From an uncultured bacterium (GTDB lineage Bacteria; Bacillota; Clostridia; Lachnospirales; Lachnospiraceae): 11,701 bases of DNA. Under the pieces are notes generated by a model, which saw nothing but the letters and a program-made list of their open reading frames with translations, ran no database searches and was not told the DNA's origin. The DNA lies in contig CAMNLO010000021.1 of NCBI GenBank assembly GCA_946543095.1, positions 1 to 11,701 on the forward strand. Direction: 5' to 3'. Every line of letters starts with the position of its first letter. Position 1 is the stretch's first letter. This document shows, in pieces, positions 3,688-10,060 of the stretch. The position numbers were made by a program, and so were the translations under genes.

Positions 3688-5701
3688 GTTCTTTCTCCTT
3701 TAATTCATTGATTTCATCAAGAGGCAGATTCAGCTCTTCCGTGCCGGGCAGTACAAACCTGCCTTCCTCTATCAGCGCGATCTCCTCTCCGTCCGCCTTT
3801 ACGGCTATGATGCTGCCCAGCTCCGAAAAGGGGATGGTGATATCGGTATGACAGTGAAAATAGGCTTCTCCGGGATCATCTCTCCATTTACAGGAGACTT
3901 CGTTCTCCTTTGCGATGATCTCTTTCCCGTCCGGATTATAGACCCGCACCTCTTCCGCCTGGGAATAGCAGGTATCGCCGAAGGCAAAATGGGGACCGGT
4001 CTTCTCCGCGATCAGGATCGGAAGCTTGTCCGCAATGCCGTATCGCTCCGCCATAACATAGGCGTATGTGTTGGTGCCGATGGCAAACTCTCCCATTGGG
4101 AGCGTGTTATGGTGCTTCAGTACATTCTCACGGAAGAACCGGCGGTTTTCCTCTTCTTCCGGGTAGTTGGCCAAAGAGTAGTCCTCCACCATGCCCTCCC
4201 GGATCCGGATCTTCAGGTCCTTATATTCCAGTCCCTCCAGGAACACGCGGCCCACGTGCAAAAGTCCCTCCGTGCCCGCAAGCACCGGAGAGGTGAACAC
4301 CTCCCCCAGAGGAATGTTCACATCCGCCACACAATTTTCGAATTTGGTCTGAGCCGCCGGATCCTCCAGCGGATGCAGCCGGACCTTCAGATCCGTCTGA
4401 TTGCCGCCCCTTCCGAGGATATGAGCATATTCTGCCTGATCCAGGGCATCGATGAGCTTCTGCTGGATCCCGGAATACCGGGAAGCATCCAGAGTGTTCA
4501 CCCGGACGGTCTCCCGGAAGATCTCCTCAAAATCATCCCCGATCGACCGCACCGGCAGCGCCATAATGGTGAAGGAAGTCTCCTCCTGGGGAATATATTT
4601 GTTGGTGATCCTGGAGGTTTCCGCCCGGAGCCTGTTGAAAAGCTTCCTTCCCTCCTCATCATACTGCACCGCGTGGGGAGACTGTTTCGGCACGAAGTCC
4701 TTCTCCCCGAAGGCTTCCAGCACCATGGGCCCCGCCAGAAGAGCCGCATTGTCCGAAAGCTCCTCATAGGCCCTTTCCAGGTTTTTCAGCCTGCGCTCCA
4801 CAAAGTCCTCGTCCAGAAACAGGGCCAGATCGTCCTTATGGTCGTAATCAAACTGCTTATTGGGATTCGTTCCGTAGATCCCCTGCTTCGAAAGGCTTCT
4901 GCCTTCGAAAAGGCTCTGGGGCGCCCGGGCATAGATGGGGGTGAGGCCAAAGGAGCGCAGCTGCTCCTCCGCTTTTGCAAGAATGGGGGCAAACCGCAGA
5001 GGCGCCCGCATCGTCACATTTTTCTTTTTGGAAAGATCTCTTCTGGTGACGGCAAAGCCTTCCCGGAAGCCCCTGACCCAGGTGGCCGCAAGGCTTTCCA
5101 CCTCTTCCTTTGGCAGTTCGTTCAAAAATGCCAGAGTCCTGCGGTCCTCCTCTGTGAGGAAATCCCCGGCGGCAATGCCTGCCACGCTGTTTCTTCCGGG
5201 GATCAGTCTGTCCTTCAGGCGTCTTTCCTGAAAATCCCGGTCCAGACCCCGGAGATAGGAAGCCATGGCGCTTTGGAGCGGGGCTTTGATGGCAGCGTAA
5301 AAATCCGGTTCCTTTGCCATGGCCAGACAGATATCCACCAGCTTTTCCAAAAGGGCCACCCGCACATGAAGCCGGAACACATCCCCGTCAAAGACCGCAG
5401 GGATCGCCGAGCGGATCTCTGCGTAAAGGACACATAACAGCTGTGCGGAATCACCGAACAGGGAGGCTGCATACTCCGGATTCCCGAAGCAACGCTCATA
5501 TCTCTCCGGCAGAATATCCGCGTACAGCCCATTCATGAGAGGCAGCTCCCCGATATCCCGAAGGGATGCGGGCATCCCGGCAGCATGATCCTTCCGCTCC
5601 CAGAGAAGGGCCGTAAAATCCCGCAGGGAAAGGAGATATTCCCGGATATGCACCGGAAGCTCCCCGATCTTGTTTTCCAGAAAATTCAATTCGATGGGCA
5701 T
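3647..5701 (-). CDS. M29-family metallo-aminopeptidase with long N-terminal extension
   Basis: The C-terminal half matches M29 (AmpS/aminopeptidase T) enzymes, two-metal exopeptidases that remove N-terminal residues from peptides. Candidate metal ligands are Glu467 (IPLGEVFTSP), Glu538 (PMGEFAIGTNTYA), His571 (GPHFAFGD), and His618 with Asp620 (FHCHTDITIPF), in the family order. At 684 residues it is much longer than the classical ~410-residue enzymes; the first ~270 residues form a mainly helical, charged region that I do not recognise. No signal peptide is visible, so it acts in the cytoplasm. The start at 5701 has AGGAAAGA upstream, and the second structured repeat lies just before it. The last 41 bp overlap the lipoprotein start. 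The family call is firm; substrate preference is unknown. Confidence 0.87.
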   Translation of the reverse strand: MPIELNFLENKIGELPVHIREYLLSLRDFTALLWERKDHAAGMPASLRDIGELPLMNGLYADILPERYERCFGNPEYAASLFGDSAQLLCVLYAEIRSAIPAVFDGDVFRLHVRVALLEKLVDICLAMAKEPDFYAAIKAPLQSAMASYLRGLDRDFQERRLKDRLIPGRNSVAGIAAGDFLTEEDRRTLAFLNELPKEEVESLAATWVRGFREGFAVTRRDLSKKKNVTMRAPLRFAPILAKAEEQLRSFGLTPIYARAPQSLFEGRSLSKQGIYGTNPNKQFDYDHKDDLALFLDEDFVERRLKNLERAYEELSDNAALLAGPMVLEAFGEKDFVPKQSPHAVQYDEEGRKLFNRLRAETSRITNKYIPQEETSFTIMALPVRSIGDDFEEIFRETVRVNTLDASRYSGIQQKLIDALDQAEYAHILGRGGNQTDLKVRLHPLEDPAAQTKFENCVADVNIPLGEVFTSPVLAGTEGLLHVGRVFLEGLEYKDLKIRIREGMVEDYSLANYPEEEENRRFFRENVLKHHNTLPMGEFAIGTNTYAYVMAERYGIADKLPILIAEKTGPHFAFGDTCYSQAEEVRVYNPDGKEIIAKENEVSCKWRDDPGEAYFHCHTDITIPFSELGSIIAVKADGEEIALIEEGRFVLPGTEELNLPLDEINELKEKEHGKDAETTADPAV

Positions 5702-5744: not shown

Positions 5745-5928
5745 TGATACACGGATCGCTTCGCTTCTACGAAGCTCAAAGCGCCGTTCCGGCGCTATGC
5801 GATCCTACAAACATTCGCAATCCGCTCATTTTGTTTCACAAAATGGCTACTTGCTCATGTTTGAGCGGGTCATAAAGTCGAAATGCTTTGTGCGAGCACA
5901 GCTTTTCGACCTTTTGACCCTTGTATCA
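5745..5928. repeat. Structured 184-bp intergenic element with TGATACA terminal inverted repeats
   Basis: The ends are TGATACA (5745-5751) and TGTATCA (5922-5928), a perfect 7-bp inverted repeat. Inside are three nested foldable blocks. Block one has GGATCGC (5753-5759) pairing with GCGATCC (5799-5805), enclosing GCTTCG/CGAAGC and AGCGCC/GGCGCT hairpins. Block two has CCGCTCA (5822-5828) pairing with TGAGCGG (5862-5868), enclosing CATTTTG/CAAAATG. Block three has GGGTCA (5867-5872) pairing with TGACCC (5915-5920), then GTCGAAA/TTTCGAC. The right end coincides with the stop codon of the 100-residue membrane protein. A 9-bp direct repeat tcaggatca flanks it at 5729-5737 and 5934-5942. It looks like a small non-autonomous or REP-like repeat; no T-run makes it a standard terminator. 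Confidence 0.6.
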
Positions 5929-6232: not shown

Positions 6233-6385
6233 TCAGATCAGCACCCGGGATCTTCCGGACAAAAGCTTTGCCCCGCTGATGATCAGCAGGACGCCGGAGA
6301 CAATGCCCGTGATCAGGAGAACGATCCCCAGTACCAGATTCAGAGCCCCCGCTCCCCCAAGTGTTTTATACATCTTCTCTCCCAT
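6233..6385 (-). CDS. Very small single-span membrane protein (50 residues)
   Basis: The frame ATG (6385) to TGA (6233-6235) encodes 50 residues with one long hydrophobic stretch, LNLVLGIVLLITGIVSGVLLI, at about 15-36, followed by a basic tail, SGRSR. A strong AAAGGAGGAGGCTTAA site precedes the ATG. The 4-bp gap to the three-helix membrane protein gene suggests a pair acting together in the membrane. I recognise similar short proteins in Clostridia, but no function is known to me. Conserved-looking hydrophobic coding, a good ribosome site and tight packing support a real gene. Confidence 0.7.
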   Translation of the reverse strand: MGEKMYKTLGGAGALNLVLGIVLLITGIVSGVLLIISGAKLLSGRSRVLI

Positions 6386-6526
6386 TTAAGCCTCCTCCTT
6401 TGCCGCGTTAGCGGCAGCCTGAGGAGAAATCACGCAGGTGATTTCTCCGATAGGAACAGTGCGATCTGGGCCGGTCACGGCACAGATGCGAGTATGAAAA
6501 ATCATCGCATCAGCGTGATTTTTCAT
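6386..6526 (-). CDS. Hypothetical 46-residue ORF inside the multi-hairpin element
   Basis: An ATG overlaps the pyrE stop as ATGA, with GGAGG 4 bases upstream, and the frame ends in TAA touching the ATG of the 50-residue gene. The product (MKNHADAMIFHTRIC...) shows no family, membrane span or signal. Nearly all its codons lie in hairpin arms, and its last codons appear to be the duplicated old end of pyrE. It may be translated, coupling pyrE to the small membrane genes, but it is most simply a by-product of the inserted element. Confidence 0.3.
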   Translation of the reverse strand: MKNHADAMIFHTRICAVTGPDRTVPIGEITCVISPQAAANAAKEEA

Positions 6527-6540
6527 ACTTCCTCCTTTGC
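6393..6540. repeat. Four-hairpin element bounded by 11-bp direct repeats
   Basis: tcctcctttgc occurs at 6393-6403 and again at 6530-6540, 137 bp apart. Between them lie four back-to-back hairpins: GCCGC/GCGGC (6402-6415), a perfect 11-bp stem GGAGAAATCAC/GTGATTTCTCC (6423-6448), ATCTG-GCCG/CGGC-CAGAT with one mismatch (6464-6487), and a 14-bp stem AGTATGAAAAATCA/TGATTTTTCATACT extended by CGC/GCG past a one-base bulge (6491-6529). Removing one 137-bp unit restores a pyrE ending KEEA, with its TAA directly abutting the next ATG. This points to insertion of a small palindromic element with an 11-bp target duplication. Confidence 0.7.
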
Positions 6541-7197
6541 TCCGTACTCATGGTAGTATGCTTCGATCCTCTGAAGCAGTCCGGGATCCGAAAGCTCCCC
6601 CTTCTCCTTCAGATAAGCGATGACTTCCTTCATGGAAACAATGGCCCCGGTGGGGAAGCCGTATTTCCGGCTTACCTCCTGCAGGGCGCTCCCATCGCTC
6701 TCAAGCCCCTTTTCTCCTCTGTCCAGCATGACCATCATGCCTATGATCCGGATATCTCCCTGGGCCTTTAAGATGGGCCAGGTCTCCTCAATGGATTTCC
6801 CGGAGGTGGTCACATCCTCGATGATCACCACCCTGTCCCCATCCTTTATTCTGGAACCCAGAAGGATCCCGGCATCCCCGTGGTCCTTGATCTCCTTCCT
6901 GTTGGAGCAGTACCGGATCTGCTTTCCGAAAAGCCTTGCATAAGCGATGACACAGGCCACGGACAAAGGAATCCCCTTATAAGCAGGCCCGAACAGGACA
7001 TCGAAATCGTCCCCGTAGGCTTCATGGATGGCTCTGGCATAGCTCTCTCCCAGCTTCAGCAGCTGCTCCCCCTCCACAAAGGCTCCCGCGTTCATGAAAA
7101 AGGGAGATTTCCGTCCGCTCTTCAGCGTAAAATCTCCGAACTGCAGTGCTTTTGCCGAGATCAGAAAATCAATAAAGTCCTTTTTATACTGTTCCAA
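6523..7197 (-). CDS. pyrE: Orotate phosphoribosyltransferase
   Basis: PyrE joins orotate to PRPP to give OMP and pyrophosphate, the fifth step of pyrimidine synthesis, in the cytoplasm as a dimer. The PRPP-binding motif VVIIEDVTTSGKS is at residues 123-135, the mobile loop RKEIKDHGD near 100-108, and FTLKSGRKSPFF near 23-34. The length of 224 residues is normal. I start at TTG 7197 because GGAGG at 7203-7207 then has a 5-base spacer and the product begins MEQYKKDFIDF, as in clostridial homologues; the GTG at 7201-7203 overlaps that site. The gene overlaps the kinase end by 14 bp. The stop TGA is supplied by the first bases of the hairpin element. Confidence 0.95.
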   Translation of the reverse strand: MEQYKKDFIDFLISAKALQFGDFTLKSGRKSPFFMNAGAFVEGEQLLKLGESYARAIHEAYGDDFDVLFGPAYKGIPLSVACVIAYARLFGKQIRYCSNRKEIKDHGDAGILLGSRIKDGDRVVIIEDVTTSGKSIEETWPILKAQGDIRIIGMMVMLDRGEKGLESDGSALQEVSRKYGFPTGAIVSMKEVIAYLKEKGELSDPGLLQRIEAYYHEYGAKEEV

Positions 7198-10060
7198 GCG
7201 CACCTCCGATCGCCGCTCCCATTTCCCTGAAGCTCTTTATAAAATCAGGTGTTTTCTTAATAATATCCTCTGTTTCCCTTTTGTCTCCCAGCTCCTGAAG
7301 CTCCGCTGCCCGTTCTCCCAGTTCCATTGCTCCGATGGCTCTGGAGGCGCTTTTCAGAGAATGGACAAGGATCGTATAACGTTCGATATTGTTTTCCCTC
7401 AGATAGCCCTCCAGCTCATCCGCATAGCCCTGGGCCGTGTTGGCGTATTCTTCCAATATCGCCTGATATGTTTCCTCATCCCCGAAGCAGTTTTCCAGTC
7501 CGGTTTCCGTGTTCAGTCCCGGGATCCCCTCGAGGCCGCATGCCTCCTCTGCTTCCGCTTCCGCCTGCTGCATTTCATCAGGCGCTTTCGTTTCTGAAGC
7601 CCCTGCCCTGTCCTCATACTCCACCTTGTCTGCCGGCAGATACTGGATCAGCAGCCGCTCCAGACGCTTCGGATCCACGGGCTTGGAGAGATAATCATCA
7701 AAGCCCGCCTTCAGGAAGGCTTCCCTGGCGCCAAAGACCGCATCCGCCGTCAGCATGATGACGGGGGTCTTCTCATTCATGTGAAAGGCCGGCTCCTTTA
7801 AGTGCTTCAGGGTCTCCATGCCGTCCATTTCCGGCATGCGCTGGTCCAAGAAGATCAGGTCATACTTCTGAGCTGCCGCCTTTTCCAGACACTCAAAGCC
7901 GCTCAGGGCTATATCCAGTTTGATCTTCGTCTGCTTCAAAAGACCCTGCAGGACCTTGATATTGATCAGGATATCGTCCACCACCAGGATCTTTGCTTCA
8001 GGAGCCCGGAAGCCTGCGGAATAGCCGCCCTCCACTTTTTTCGTCTCCCGGAACATGGCCTCCATGTCTCCGATAGGGGTCCAGTCAACGACCTTCTGGG
8101 CGAGCCGGAAGAAAAAGGTGCTGCCCTTTCCGTATTCGCTTTCGATCTCAATGCGGGAGCCCATTTCCGCAAGGAGCTCCGTGACAATGGAAAGCCCCAG
8201 TCCCGTGCCTTCGATATCCCGGTTCTTTCCCTCCTCAATGCGTACATAGGGAGAAATGATGATGGGGATATTCTCCTTCCGGATGCCGATGCCCGTGTCC
8301 TTCACCCTGCAGGTGACAAGGATCTCATCCTCCCCGGTCTTTTCGTATTCGATCTCTAAGGTGATGCTGCCTTCCTTCGTATACTTGATGGCATTGGTGA
8401 GCAGGTTCATGACGCATTCCTTGATCCTGGTCTCGTCGCCGTAAAGGATATGGGGCAGCGTGGGATCCACATGGACGATAAAGTCCAGATCCTTTTCCCT
8501 GGCGCGGTATAACACCATGTTCATCAGATCATTCAGGGCGGAACCAACCTCGTATTCCTCCGGCACCAGCTTGATCCTCCCGGACTCGATCCGGGACAGA
8601 TCCAGAACATCATTGATCAGGGATAAAAGCGTCCTTCCGGAATTCCGGATATCCGACGCATATTCCCGGATCTTTGTTTCTCCGGATTCTCTTAAGATCA
8701 TCTCGTCAAGACCCAGGATCGCGTTGATGGGGGTCCTGATCTCATGGGAGAGATGGGAAATGAAGCGGGTCTTTGCCTCATTGGCCTCCCTGGCTTCATT
8801 GGCGGAACGCTCCAGCTCCGCGGTGGTGCGGGACAGGAAGGTCACAAGACGGTTTACCAGAGGGACGCTCTCTCCGGCGTAGGGATAATAGGAAAAGGCA
8901 GAAAGATCCTGTTTCAGGGATTCCGGAAGCTCTCCTTCCCGGAAGGCTATGCTGACCAGTGCCGAGGTCAGCTCCCCGCCGCTCTCCCCCAGGATGTAGA
9001 GCTCCGAATAGCCGTGAAAGGAAAGGAATTCAGGGACCGCTCTGCGATAGACCTTAAACTGGCTCTTTTCCTCCTCCCCTAAAAACAGGGTCCGGTTTAA
9101 ACAGCTGTTCATCAAAAGGGCCTGGGTCCCGAAGGCGTGGATCTCCTGGCAGTTTTCATAGGTCTCTTTGTTGATCACTCCGGGATCCGCGTAGGAAAGC
9201 TGGACCTGCTCTCCCTCCTCCACATTTGCGGAGAAACGGAAGGCTCCTTCGCCAGCATCCTGGATCATGATCCTGGCCACCGGCAGCCCTCCCTTATTCA
9301 TGATAAAGGGAAAGGCGCAGACATTGTCCATGGTGAGCTGCTCCTTCAGCAGCCCGAAGTATTTTGTGTACACCTCGGAGGTGGGAGCATTGTCGATCTC
9401 ATGGATCACAAAATCCTCCGCCTTTGTGATGGTCATTTTCTTTCCGATGGGGATCCAGCCCAAATTATAATGCACCCTCAGATGAAGGTCCTTCCCGGAA
9501 AAGGTCACACAGACGAAAGCCTCTGTCATGGGATCCTTCCCATGAAAGGCCGCCATCAGGCTCCTTCCGTCGGGATACACCACCAGTCCTGACCTGCCGC
9601 CGAAAAAGGGCAGCATCGGGAATTCCCGGGCCACAGGGTATACGAAGCGCTCCAGGGATAGGGTCTCACTGGCCCCGAAGACCAGCACCCCCTGCAGCTC
9701 CTTTTCCGCCTTCAGATCCTGCAGCAGGGCAGCCGAGGCTGTCTTTTCCTCTCCCCTGATACAGGGATAGGAAAACACTCTTGCTTCCCCGGTCTCAAAG
9801 ACCAGGAAGGTGTAGCTGTCCTCCAGATGCTCCGGATTATGATAGATCACGCGCTTGTCCGTCATGCCGGAAATGACAGCCTCAGGGAAGGAATCCGAAA
9901 GCATATCCAGTTTATTTTCCACGGAAGACCGATCAGCGTCCTCTAAAAAAGCAAAGATCAGGAGACAGGCAGCGTTCCGGATCTCCGGACTCCTGCCCGC
10001 CTCCTGAAGCATTTTGAACAACTCCAGGTTGTTATGAACGTGATAAGTCTTCTGCAGCAT
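7184..10060 (-). CDS. Soluble hybrid histidine kinase: FIST-HisKA-HATPase-REC-HPt
   Basis: The protein has 958 residues and no membrane segment. Residues about 30-380 resemble a FIST sensor (FIST_N then FIST_C), a domain proposed to bind small ligands such as amino acids. HisKA follows with SHLSHEIRTP (phospho-acceptor His439), then HATPase with N box NLLTNAIKY (552-560), G1 DTGIGI (588-593) and G2 GTGLGL (618-623). A receiver follows with Asp695/Asp696, phospho-Asp739, Thr771 and Lys793, and last an HPt domain with His900 (VHSLKSASRAIG). Phosphate can thus pass His439 to Asp739 to His900 within one chain and on to an unlinked regulator; no DNA-binding regulator is in the window. The ATG overlaps the previous stop by one base (TAATG). 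Domain order is firm; the signal and output are unknown. Confidence 0.93.
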   Translation of the reverse strand: MLQKTYHVHNNLELFKMLQEAGRSPEIRNAACLLIFAFLEDADRSSVENKLDMLSDSFPEAVISGMTDKRVIYHNPEHLEDSYTFLVFETGEARVFSYPCIRGEEKTASAALLQDLKAEKELQGVLVFGASETLSLERFVYPVAREFPMLPFFGGRSGLVVYPDGRSLMAAFHGKDPMTEAFVCVTFSGKDLHLRVHYNLGWIPIGKKMTITKAEDFVIHEIDNAPTSEVYTKYFGLLKEQLTMDNVCAFPFIMNKGGLPVARIMIQDAGEGAFRFSANVEEGEQVQLSYADPGVINKETYENCQEIHAFGTQALLMNSCLNRTLFLGEEEKSQFKVYRRAVPEFLSFHGYSELYILGESGGELTSALVSIAFREGELPESLKQDLSAFSYYPYAGESVPLVNRLVTFLSRTTAELERSANEAREANEAKTRFISHLSHEIRTPINAILGLDEMILRESGETKIREYASDIRNSGRTLLSLINDVLDLSRIESGRIKLVPEEYEVGSALNDLMNMVLYRAREKDLDFIVHVDPTLPHILYGDETRIKECVMNLLTNAIKYTKEGSITLEIEYEKTGEDEILVTCRVKDTGIGIRKENIPIIISPYVRIEEGKNRDIEGTGLGLSIVTELLAEMGSRIEIESEYGKGSTFFFRLAQKVVDWTPIGDMEAMFRETKKVEGGYSAGFRAPEAKILVVDDILINIKVLQGLLKQTKIKLDIALSGFECLEKAAAQKYDLIFLDQRMPEMDGMETLKHLKEPAFHMNEKTPVIMLTADAVFGAREAFLKAGFDDYLSKPVDPKRLERLLIQYLPADKVEYEDRAGASETKAPDEMQQAEAEAEEACGLEGIPGLNTETGLENCFGDEETYQAILEEYANTAQGYADELEGYLRENNIERYTILVHSLKSASRAIGAMELGERAAELQELGDKRETEDIIKKTPDFIKSFREMGAAIGGALGTV
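7203..7207 (-). promoter_or_regulatory. Ribosome binding site that fixes the pyrE start
   Basis: GGAGG on the minus strand lies 5 bases before TTG (7195-7197) but shares its last G with the GTG at 7201-7203. It therefore favours the TTG start. The site lies inside the last codons of the kinase gene, so kinase and pyrE translation are likely coupled. Confidence 0.65.

What the first reader, a model, noticed from the sequence alone, without database searches (positions are those of the whole stretch)
6393..6540. A 137-bp chain of four hairpins inserted at the pyrE stop with an 11-bp target duplication
Seen: tcctcctttgc flanks the block exactly, and almost every base between pairs in one of four consecutive stems, one of 14 bp and one of 11 bp without mismatch. 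Excising one unit rebuilds a perfect boundary: pyrE would end KEEA with TAA touching the ATG of the 50-residue gene, and the same GGAGG would serve that gene. Inference: a small palindromic mobile or REP-like element entered the operon and brought a new stop and start. The duplicated stretch is the ribosome site, so the downstream gene kept its translation signal.
Basis: partly seen in the sequence, partly recalled or inferred. Interest (0 to 1): 0.72.

Follow-up and report, generated by a model that had tools for sequence, protein, structure and literature searches.

The report
Mobile hairpin element targeting start codons
A roughly 130-base chain of hairpins, repeated dozens of times in this gut bacterium and found in a number of its relatives, sits between a gene's ribosome-binding site and its start codon and carries a replacement ribosome-binding site, so the gene it lands on looks able to go on working.

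Summary
In detail: exact 11-bp repeat, four hairpins (z -7.9). The block is a multicopy mobile element: 27 BLAST places (itself and its inverted self-match included) and 50 covariance-model matches in its own 68%-complete genome, three copies identical over 128 bp at different sites, and 45 of 250 sampled family genomes. In gene direction copies run: native SD | AGTRTGAAA + hairpin D, hairpins C and B, terminal hairpin A, element SD (GGAATGGAGRTT) | usually three bases | ATG. A pseudoknot between C's loop and the segment before the element SD covaries. Eight sites filled in one and empty in the other of two congeneric genomes show movement; three of them exclude a duplicated SD as the source of the right-hand SD, five cannot tell. 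No Rfam family matches. Y1 transposases, the REP drivers, are missing from 12 of the 15 copy-richest genomes. The driver is unknown. A start-like codon in D is common, but its reading frame is not conserved.

The parts
6393..6540 (-). whole element copy with both SD-containing direct repeats
   Evidence: direct repeat exact; matching places in own genome; CM R1 match 6393-6530 minus, 146.6 bits (R1 was built with this copy among ten)
6530..6540 (-). GCAAAGGAGGA: native SD at the upstream side (inside pyrE 3' end); now stands before the element's AGT-ATG-AAA
   Evidence: sequence; SD-like motif in the left flank of 92 of 109 distinct copies
6491..6529 (-). hairpin D; its first arm holds the new pyrE stop (GTA-TGA) and an ATG-AAA-AAT start-like codon
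   Evidence: fold; 8 of 13 D pairs show changes on both sides in 35 relatives
6523..6525 (-). TGA stop of pyrE supplied by the element
   Evidence: ORF list
6461..6490 (-). hairpin C; in relatives its loop pairs with the element's 3' end (pseudoknot)
   Evidence: the pseudoknot was counted on relatives, not on the window's own subfamily
6423..6448 (-). hairpin B
6401..6416 (-). hairpin A (TGCCGC/GCGGCA), directly before the downstream SD
6391..6403 (-). GCAAAGGAGGAGG: SD of the 50-residue gene; element-borne in the family at large, here identical to the left repeat for 11 bp
   Evidence: SD 9-12 nt before the start codon in 92 of 109 distinct copies
6386..6526 (-). 46-codon reading frame spanning the element, stop touching the next ATG
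   Evidence: not conserved in the family: frame open through in 41 of 112 distinct copies
6523..7203 (-). pyrE (upstream gene; its C-terminus altered by the insertion)
6233..6385 (-). 50-residue downstream gene
   Evidence: no relative outside this locus among the loci held

Best explanation
The block is one copy of a non-autonomous mobile repeat family of Lachnospiraceae. SHOWN: copies lie in one orientation, between a gene's original SD and its start codon, usually with three bases between the element's own 3' SD and the ATG; sites differ between congeneric genomes; at three of eight such sites the right-hand SD is not a duplicate of the native one; hairpins D, C, B and a pairing of C's loop with the 3' end are kept by compensatory change. 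INFERRED: the element's SD takes over the gene, while the original SD now stands before the element's stop/start-like AGTRTGAAA; the element is mobilised in trans by an unidentified enzyme that recognises sequence around the start codon (targets GGAGRTT^ANTATG resemble the element's own joined ends GGAGATT^AGTRTG), so that one event splits one translation-initiation region and rebuilds two. It persists because the upstream gene meets TAG or TGA in two frames and the downstream gene keeps an SD. The fold is most likely a substrate signal for the mobilising machinery, with possible side effects on mRNA.
For: Multicopy with different flanks; three own copies identical over 128 bp. Nine empty/filled pairs between G012 and G274 compared, eight kept. 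On the filled side the gap from the element's SD motif to the ATG is 3 nt at six sites, 4 at L256, not definable at L267. On the empty side the junction lies 3 nt before ATG at L258, L265, L267, 4 at L103 and L256, 8 at L098, ambiguous at L100 and L101. Clearest...GTGTACT^GATATG becomes ...GTGTACT|AGTGTG...GGAATGGAGATT|GATATG. 7 of 15 G012 loci are filled at the same place in G274. Among 75 distinct non-own copies, 45 of the 49 with the 3' motif have exactly 3 nt before ATG (26 lack the motif), and T stands left of the junction in 65 against 27% of 123 background genes at -4; GGAGG lies 10-11 nt before ATG in 25 of 28 copies and in 37 of 123 background genes, which my rule limited to 9-16 nt. 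Downstream genes are unrelated: 9 own and 10 G012, 18 of 19 with a Pfam match, no family shared. Covariation: 93.4% of cells paired, 28 of 43 pairs with changes on both sides, score 0.320 against 0.116 shuffled and at most 0.096 slid; loop/3'-end duplex -13.0 against -11.1 +/- 0.19 permuted.
Against: No mobilising enzyme was found. Pooled flank agreement and single sites such as L175, L195, L199 and G006:C20 are not explained without duplication; five of the eight pairs cannot exclude it. Only L258 is clean base for base; the others have small differences at the junction, and L098 has 8 nt on the empty side. In the window copy GGAGGA stands 7 nt before the ATG, and own-genome copies obey the 3-nt rule less well (6 of 32; 20 lack the motif). 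One further presumed empty site (L108/L295) appears to hold an element remnant. The pairs do not say whether an element was gained or precisely lost. Unlike loops and 3' ends also reach -8 kcal/mol in 74% of cross pairs, so single pseudoknots are not proved. Selection could account for part of the tight placement.
Confidence: 0.68

Rival explanations
1. MITE-like element that makes a target-site duplication covering the SD: the SD is the target and both copies are native.
For: Exact 11-bp repeat in the window; L175, L195, L199 and G006:C20 share non-consensus flank bases left and right; pooled permutation test 0 of 5000; five of eight empty/filled pairs are compatible.
Against: L258, L103 and L098 have a right SD that is not a copy of the native one; right flanks are uniform (GGAATGGAGRTT) while left flanks vary like ordinary SDs; no correlation within four single genomes.
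Confidence: 0.17
2. Insertion is not specific to translation starts; the element lands widely in intergenic DNA and only copies that keep SD-to-ATG geometry survive selection.
For: The element carries an SD, so badly placed copies would harm the gene (inference; SD carriage).
Against: Background genes spread GGAGG over 9-16 nt before ATG (limits set by my rule), copies cluster at 10-11; T preference at the junction.
Confidence: 0.2
3. A cis-regulatory RNA (attenuator or translational switch), not primarily a mobile element: alternative pairing of the 3' segment with hairpin A's 5' arm or with C's loop gates the SD.
For: Covarying pseudoknot; the 3' strand abuts the SD; in L195, L172 and L187 it can pair with either partner.
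Against: Unrelated downstream genes; copies differ between congeners; patchy distribution; G-U against A-C counts are 48:18 in 35 sequences but 63:53 in 97, so folding as mRNA is not demonstrated.
Confidence: 0.1
4. REP-like element mobilised by a Y1 (RAYT/IS200-type) transposase.
For: Palindromic, intergenic, no duplication needed.
Against: Y1_Tnp found in 18 of 45 element-bearing genomes against 120 of the other 205, in 3 of the 15 copy-richest, and not in G012 (99% complete) (my tally); left flank variable apart from T.
Confidence: 0.03

Closest known systems
BOX elements of Streptococcus pneumoniae (PMC3049150; ten passages read, among them part of the abstract)
   Same: Small, modular, non-autonomous interspersed repeats, some in transcribed regions; often supply the stop codon of the upstream gene (36 cases given there); modules vary in number.
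   Different: Other host; placement between SD and start codon with an own 3' SD is not in the passages I read; here also a covarying pseudoknot. Sequences were not compared.
REP/BIME with RAYT (Y1) transposases (features recalled)
   Same: Multicopy palindromic intergenic elements.
   Different: Longer, four hairpins with pseudoknot, one orientation to genes, host genomes often without Y1 transposase.
Classical MITEs (terminal inverted repeats and TSD)
   Same: Short, non-autonomous, polymorphic insertions.
   Different: The two ends are not inverted repeats of each other (sequences); at three sites the right SD is not a target duplicate.
Clostridiales-1 RNA, RF01699
   Same: Structured RNA motif of Clostridiales and human gut (table entry in PMC2864571); one copy lies next to this element in the window.
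   Different: Different Rfam model; the element matches no Rfam family at gathering threshold in 18 loci; only a chance miRNA match, E 0.97.

Membership tests
REP / RAYT system | Y1 (HUH) transposase in the host genome | tested here: not met
   no Y1_Tnp match in G000 (68% complete) or G012 (99% complete, 16 copies); 3 of the 15 copy-richest genomes have one
REP / RAYT system | single short hairpin with conserved 5' tetranucleotide (recalled definition) | tested here: not met
   four hairpins over about 110-160 nt; left flank variable apart from T
MITE (TIR + TSD) | target-site duplication | tested here: inconclusive
   not at L258, L103, L098; five pairs ambiguous; no within-genome flank correlation in four genomes, but pooled correlation and some matching sites
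MITE (TIR + TSD) | terminal inverted repeats | tested here: not met
   left end AGTRTGAAA lies in a self-contained hairpin, right end is AATGGAGRTT; the ends do not pair in the consensus
BOX element family | boxA/boxB/boxC sequence modules | not tested
   BOX sequences were not fetched
IS110-type (bridge-RNA) derivative | DEDD_Tnp_IS110 recombinase in genomes with the element | tested here: not met
   no match in 8 of the 15 element-bearing genomes searched, G274 among them
Known Rfam RNA family | score above gathering threshold | tested here: not met
   no family at the element in 18 loci or in the window stretch

The most novel reading that the evidence does not exclude
A mobile element class whose integration site is the translation-initiation region itself: its joined ends form an SD-spacer-start codon, it recombines with a gene's own SD^start junction without duplication, and every insertion turns one initiation region into two hybrid ones, leaving host genes intact. 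An unknown recombinase or RNA-guided system would have to recognise start-codon sequence.
Probability: 0.38. Interest if true: 0.85.

Novelty: new variant of a known kind. Interest (0 to 1): 0.68.

Why it matters
This repeat appears to have settled on the few bases between SD and start codon and to bring what both neighbouring genes need, in 45 of 250 sampled genomes of a major gut family. If the specificity is enzymatic, an unknown recombination system that reads start codons is waiting to be found, possibly a tool for placing DNA at gene starts. It also bears on annotation: at many gene junctions of these genomes the stop codon, the SD and small ORFs may be element-derived.

Tried and rejected
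Rejected: chance repeat (multicopy). Known RNA family. A conserved peptide: a start-like codon (GTG, ATG or TTG) is present in 94 of 112 distinct copies, but the frame runs through to the next gene in 41 of 112 (the other two frames in 8 and 20) and in none of 9 G014 copies. RNA-strand proof by G-U against A-C: 48:18 in 35 sequences shrank to 63:53 in 97, so I do not use it. Y1 and IS110 transposases as drivers. Viral or plasmid carriage: 0 hits of two patterns in viral contigs, no plasmid match, three unannotated 'Bacteriophage sp.' faecal records at 74-79% (one opened, no annotation).

Literature: nine searches were answered (two searches found no paper) in the open-access library. Seen as listings only, except passages of PMC2864571 and PMC3049150. 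I saw no description of this element there; most subscription journals and preprints are not covered.

Of 50 own CM matches I used 48, of 52 in relatives 41. That makes 148 oriented copies, 3 of them in twice, since G012 and G014 are among the named genomes; one search was not recounted without them. For 13 copies my rule (ORF of 60 codons or more, or running off the end) found no downstream start, the window copy among them; 4 lay too near a contig end; some starts picked by the rule are plainly wrong (TTG picks such as L155). Copies outside 100-175 nt were left out. One search used strict filters and scored at most 12 candidates per genome, so copy numbers there are lower bounds. The 19 downstream proteins scanned were chosen from 42 eligible in two genomes.

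Full report
WHAT IS THERE. The direct repeat TCCTCCTTTGC is exact at 6393-6403 and 6530-6540, and the bases between fold on the minus strand, the direction of the genes, at -56.5 kcal/mol against -29.5 +/- 3.4 for 500 dinucleotide shuffles. In gene direction the hairpins come in the order D, C, B, A. pyrE ends inside D's first arm; the next gene, of 50 codons, starts after hairpin A and an SD.

MULTICOPY. BLAST of the block against its own genome (2.04 Mb, 370 contigs, 68% complete) gives 27 places, the block itself and its inverted self-match among them. A covariance model built from ten copies gives 50 matches at E <= 0.01, the last three weak (E 0.002 to 0.005). Flanks differ. Copies are modular: extra hairpins occur inside C and between A and B, and a second subfamily has three copies identical over 128 bp with different flanks. 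I call the family Lachnospiraceae because copies of G012 and G014 are identical to loci titled Lachnospiraceae and Lachnospira.

ANATOMY. Of 145 distinct oriented copies a downstream gene start was found by rule for 128. In the 109 kept for flank statistics an SD-like motif lies in the left flank of 92, and one lies 9-12 nt before the start codon in 92. The left motif varies like ordinary gene SDs; the right one is rather uniform, GGAATGGAGRTT, and so mostly element-borne. Among 75 non-own copies, 49 hold this 3' motif and 45 of them have exactly three bases before the ATG. GGAGG lies 10-11 nt before ATG in 25 of 28 copies and in 37 of 123 background genes, and T stands left of the junction in 65 of 75 copies against 27% of background genes. 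The neighbour upstream is on the same strand in 67 of 103 copies, opposite in 27, not found in 9; 11 same-strand genes stop at positions -1 or +4 of the element (up to three copies counted twice). Downstream genes are unrelated: FHIPEP, glutamine synthetase, dephospho-CoA kinase, asparaginase, a sigma factor, a manganese pump and others, 18 of 19 with a Pfam match.

STRUCTURE. On 35 diverse copies the named structure pairs 93.4% of cells; 28 of 43 pairs show changes on both sides; every measure exceeds 500 shuffles and the slid controls. The structure was read off one of these sequences, which favours it over slid versions. The pseudoknot between C's loop and the segment before the element SD has 4 of 8 pairs with changes on both sides. 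In the 93 of 97 copies with a recognisable C hairpin, own loop and own 3' segment pair better on average than permuted ones (-13.0 against -11.1 +/- 0.19, 0 of 5000), for example CGAGAACGC/GCGTTCTCG (L187) and TCAGAGC/GCTCTGA (L182); but unlike partners also reach -8 in 74% of cases, and relatedness inflates such tests. Whether the fold acts as RNA or as single-stranded DNA is open: G-U to A-C counts were 48:18 in 35 sequences and 63:53 in 97.

EMPTY SITES. Two genomes of one genus (G012, G274; orthologous stretches about 93-96% identical) carry 16 and 15 matches. Seven of 15 G012 loci are filled at the same place in both. Two further G012 loci (L104, L105) have rearranged counterparts and gave nothing, and L110 had none. 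Nine sites were compared in filled and unfilled form. One (L108/L295) seems to keep an element remnant, on my reading of its letters. Of the other eight, L258 is clean: GAAGAGGTGTACT^GATATGGC becomes GAAGAGGTGTACT|AGTGTG...GGAATGGAGATT|GATATGGC. L103 and L098 also show a right SD that is not a copy of the native one. L100, L101, L256, L265 and L267 cannot tell element SD from duplicated SD. On the filled side the gap to the ATG is 3 nt at six sites and 4 at L256; on the empty side the junction is 3 nt before ATG at three, 4 at two, 8 at L098, and ambiguous at two. L267 lies directly behind another element. Left/right flank agreement is above permutation when pooled (106 copies) but in none of four single genomes, and some sites (L175, L195, L199) agree strikingly. 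I therefore read the 11-bp repeat of the window as native SD plus element SD (AAAGGAGG being a strong SD, from recall), without excluding a duplication at this one site, where the ATG is also farther off than usual.

HOW IT LIKELY WORKS. The element's joined ends, GGAGATT^AGTRTGAAA, look like a translation-initiation region, and its targets are such regions. Insertion makes two hybrids: native SD with the element's start-like codon, and element SD with the native ATG. The upstream gene finds TAG (with the flanking T) or TGA in two of three frames. A start-like codon is present in 94 of 112 copies but its frame reaches the next gene in only 41, so translation of the element may help in some copies but is no conserved peptide. 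Mobilisation must be in trans; Y1 and IS110 enzymes are not consistently present. Placement, site differences, SD carriage and pairing are shown; target recognition, trans mobilisation, takeover of translation and the role of the fold are inferred.

KNOWN OR NEW. No Rfam family matches, and nine answered literature searches in the open-access library showed me no description. The nearest kind is the modular small interspersed repeat, as BOX in pneumococcus (PMC3049150, passages read), which also supplies stop codons of neighbouring genes. Placement between SD and start codon with an own SD, and the pseudoknot, set this family apart; I call it a new variant of that kind.

Noticed in passing
window 5745-5928, minus strand: A Clostridiales-1 RNA (RF01699, 100.4 bits, on L031) lies on the same strand about 45 nt before the gene starting at 5701; another match lies in L044. 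It too may be a mobile structured repeat.
   Followed up: partly
L195, L172, L187 (3' part of element): The segment before the element SD can pair both with hairpin A's 5' arm and with the loop of hairpin C, and all three differ together between subfamilies: a possible strand exchange.
   Followed up: partly
L156, L102, L192, L202, L267: The left flank reads like the 3' end of another element: copies in tandem, one inserted behind another's SD.
   Followed up: no
L036/L027 (G000:C287): A copy whose hairpin A region has become a tandem array of short GTATGC-linked hairpins.
   Followed up: no
G274 contigs C36, C1, C16, C47: Contigs end inside element copies, and one orthologous stretch of G012 is split over two G274 contigs at an element: assembly breaks or recombination between copies.
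   Followed up: no
L047 (G000:C176): A copy between a polA-like 3' end (my reading) and coaE (CoaE domain); the upstream frame's TAG stop lies in hairpin D's first arm.
   Followed up: partly
MT836788.1, MT837007.1, MT838414.1: Three unannotated 'Bacteriophage sp.' records from human faeces carry element relatives; possibly bacterial contigs.
   Followed up: partly
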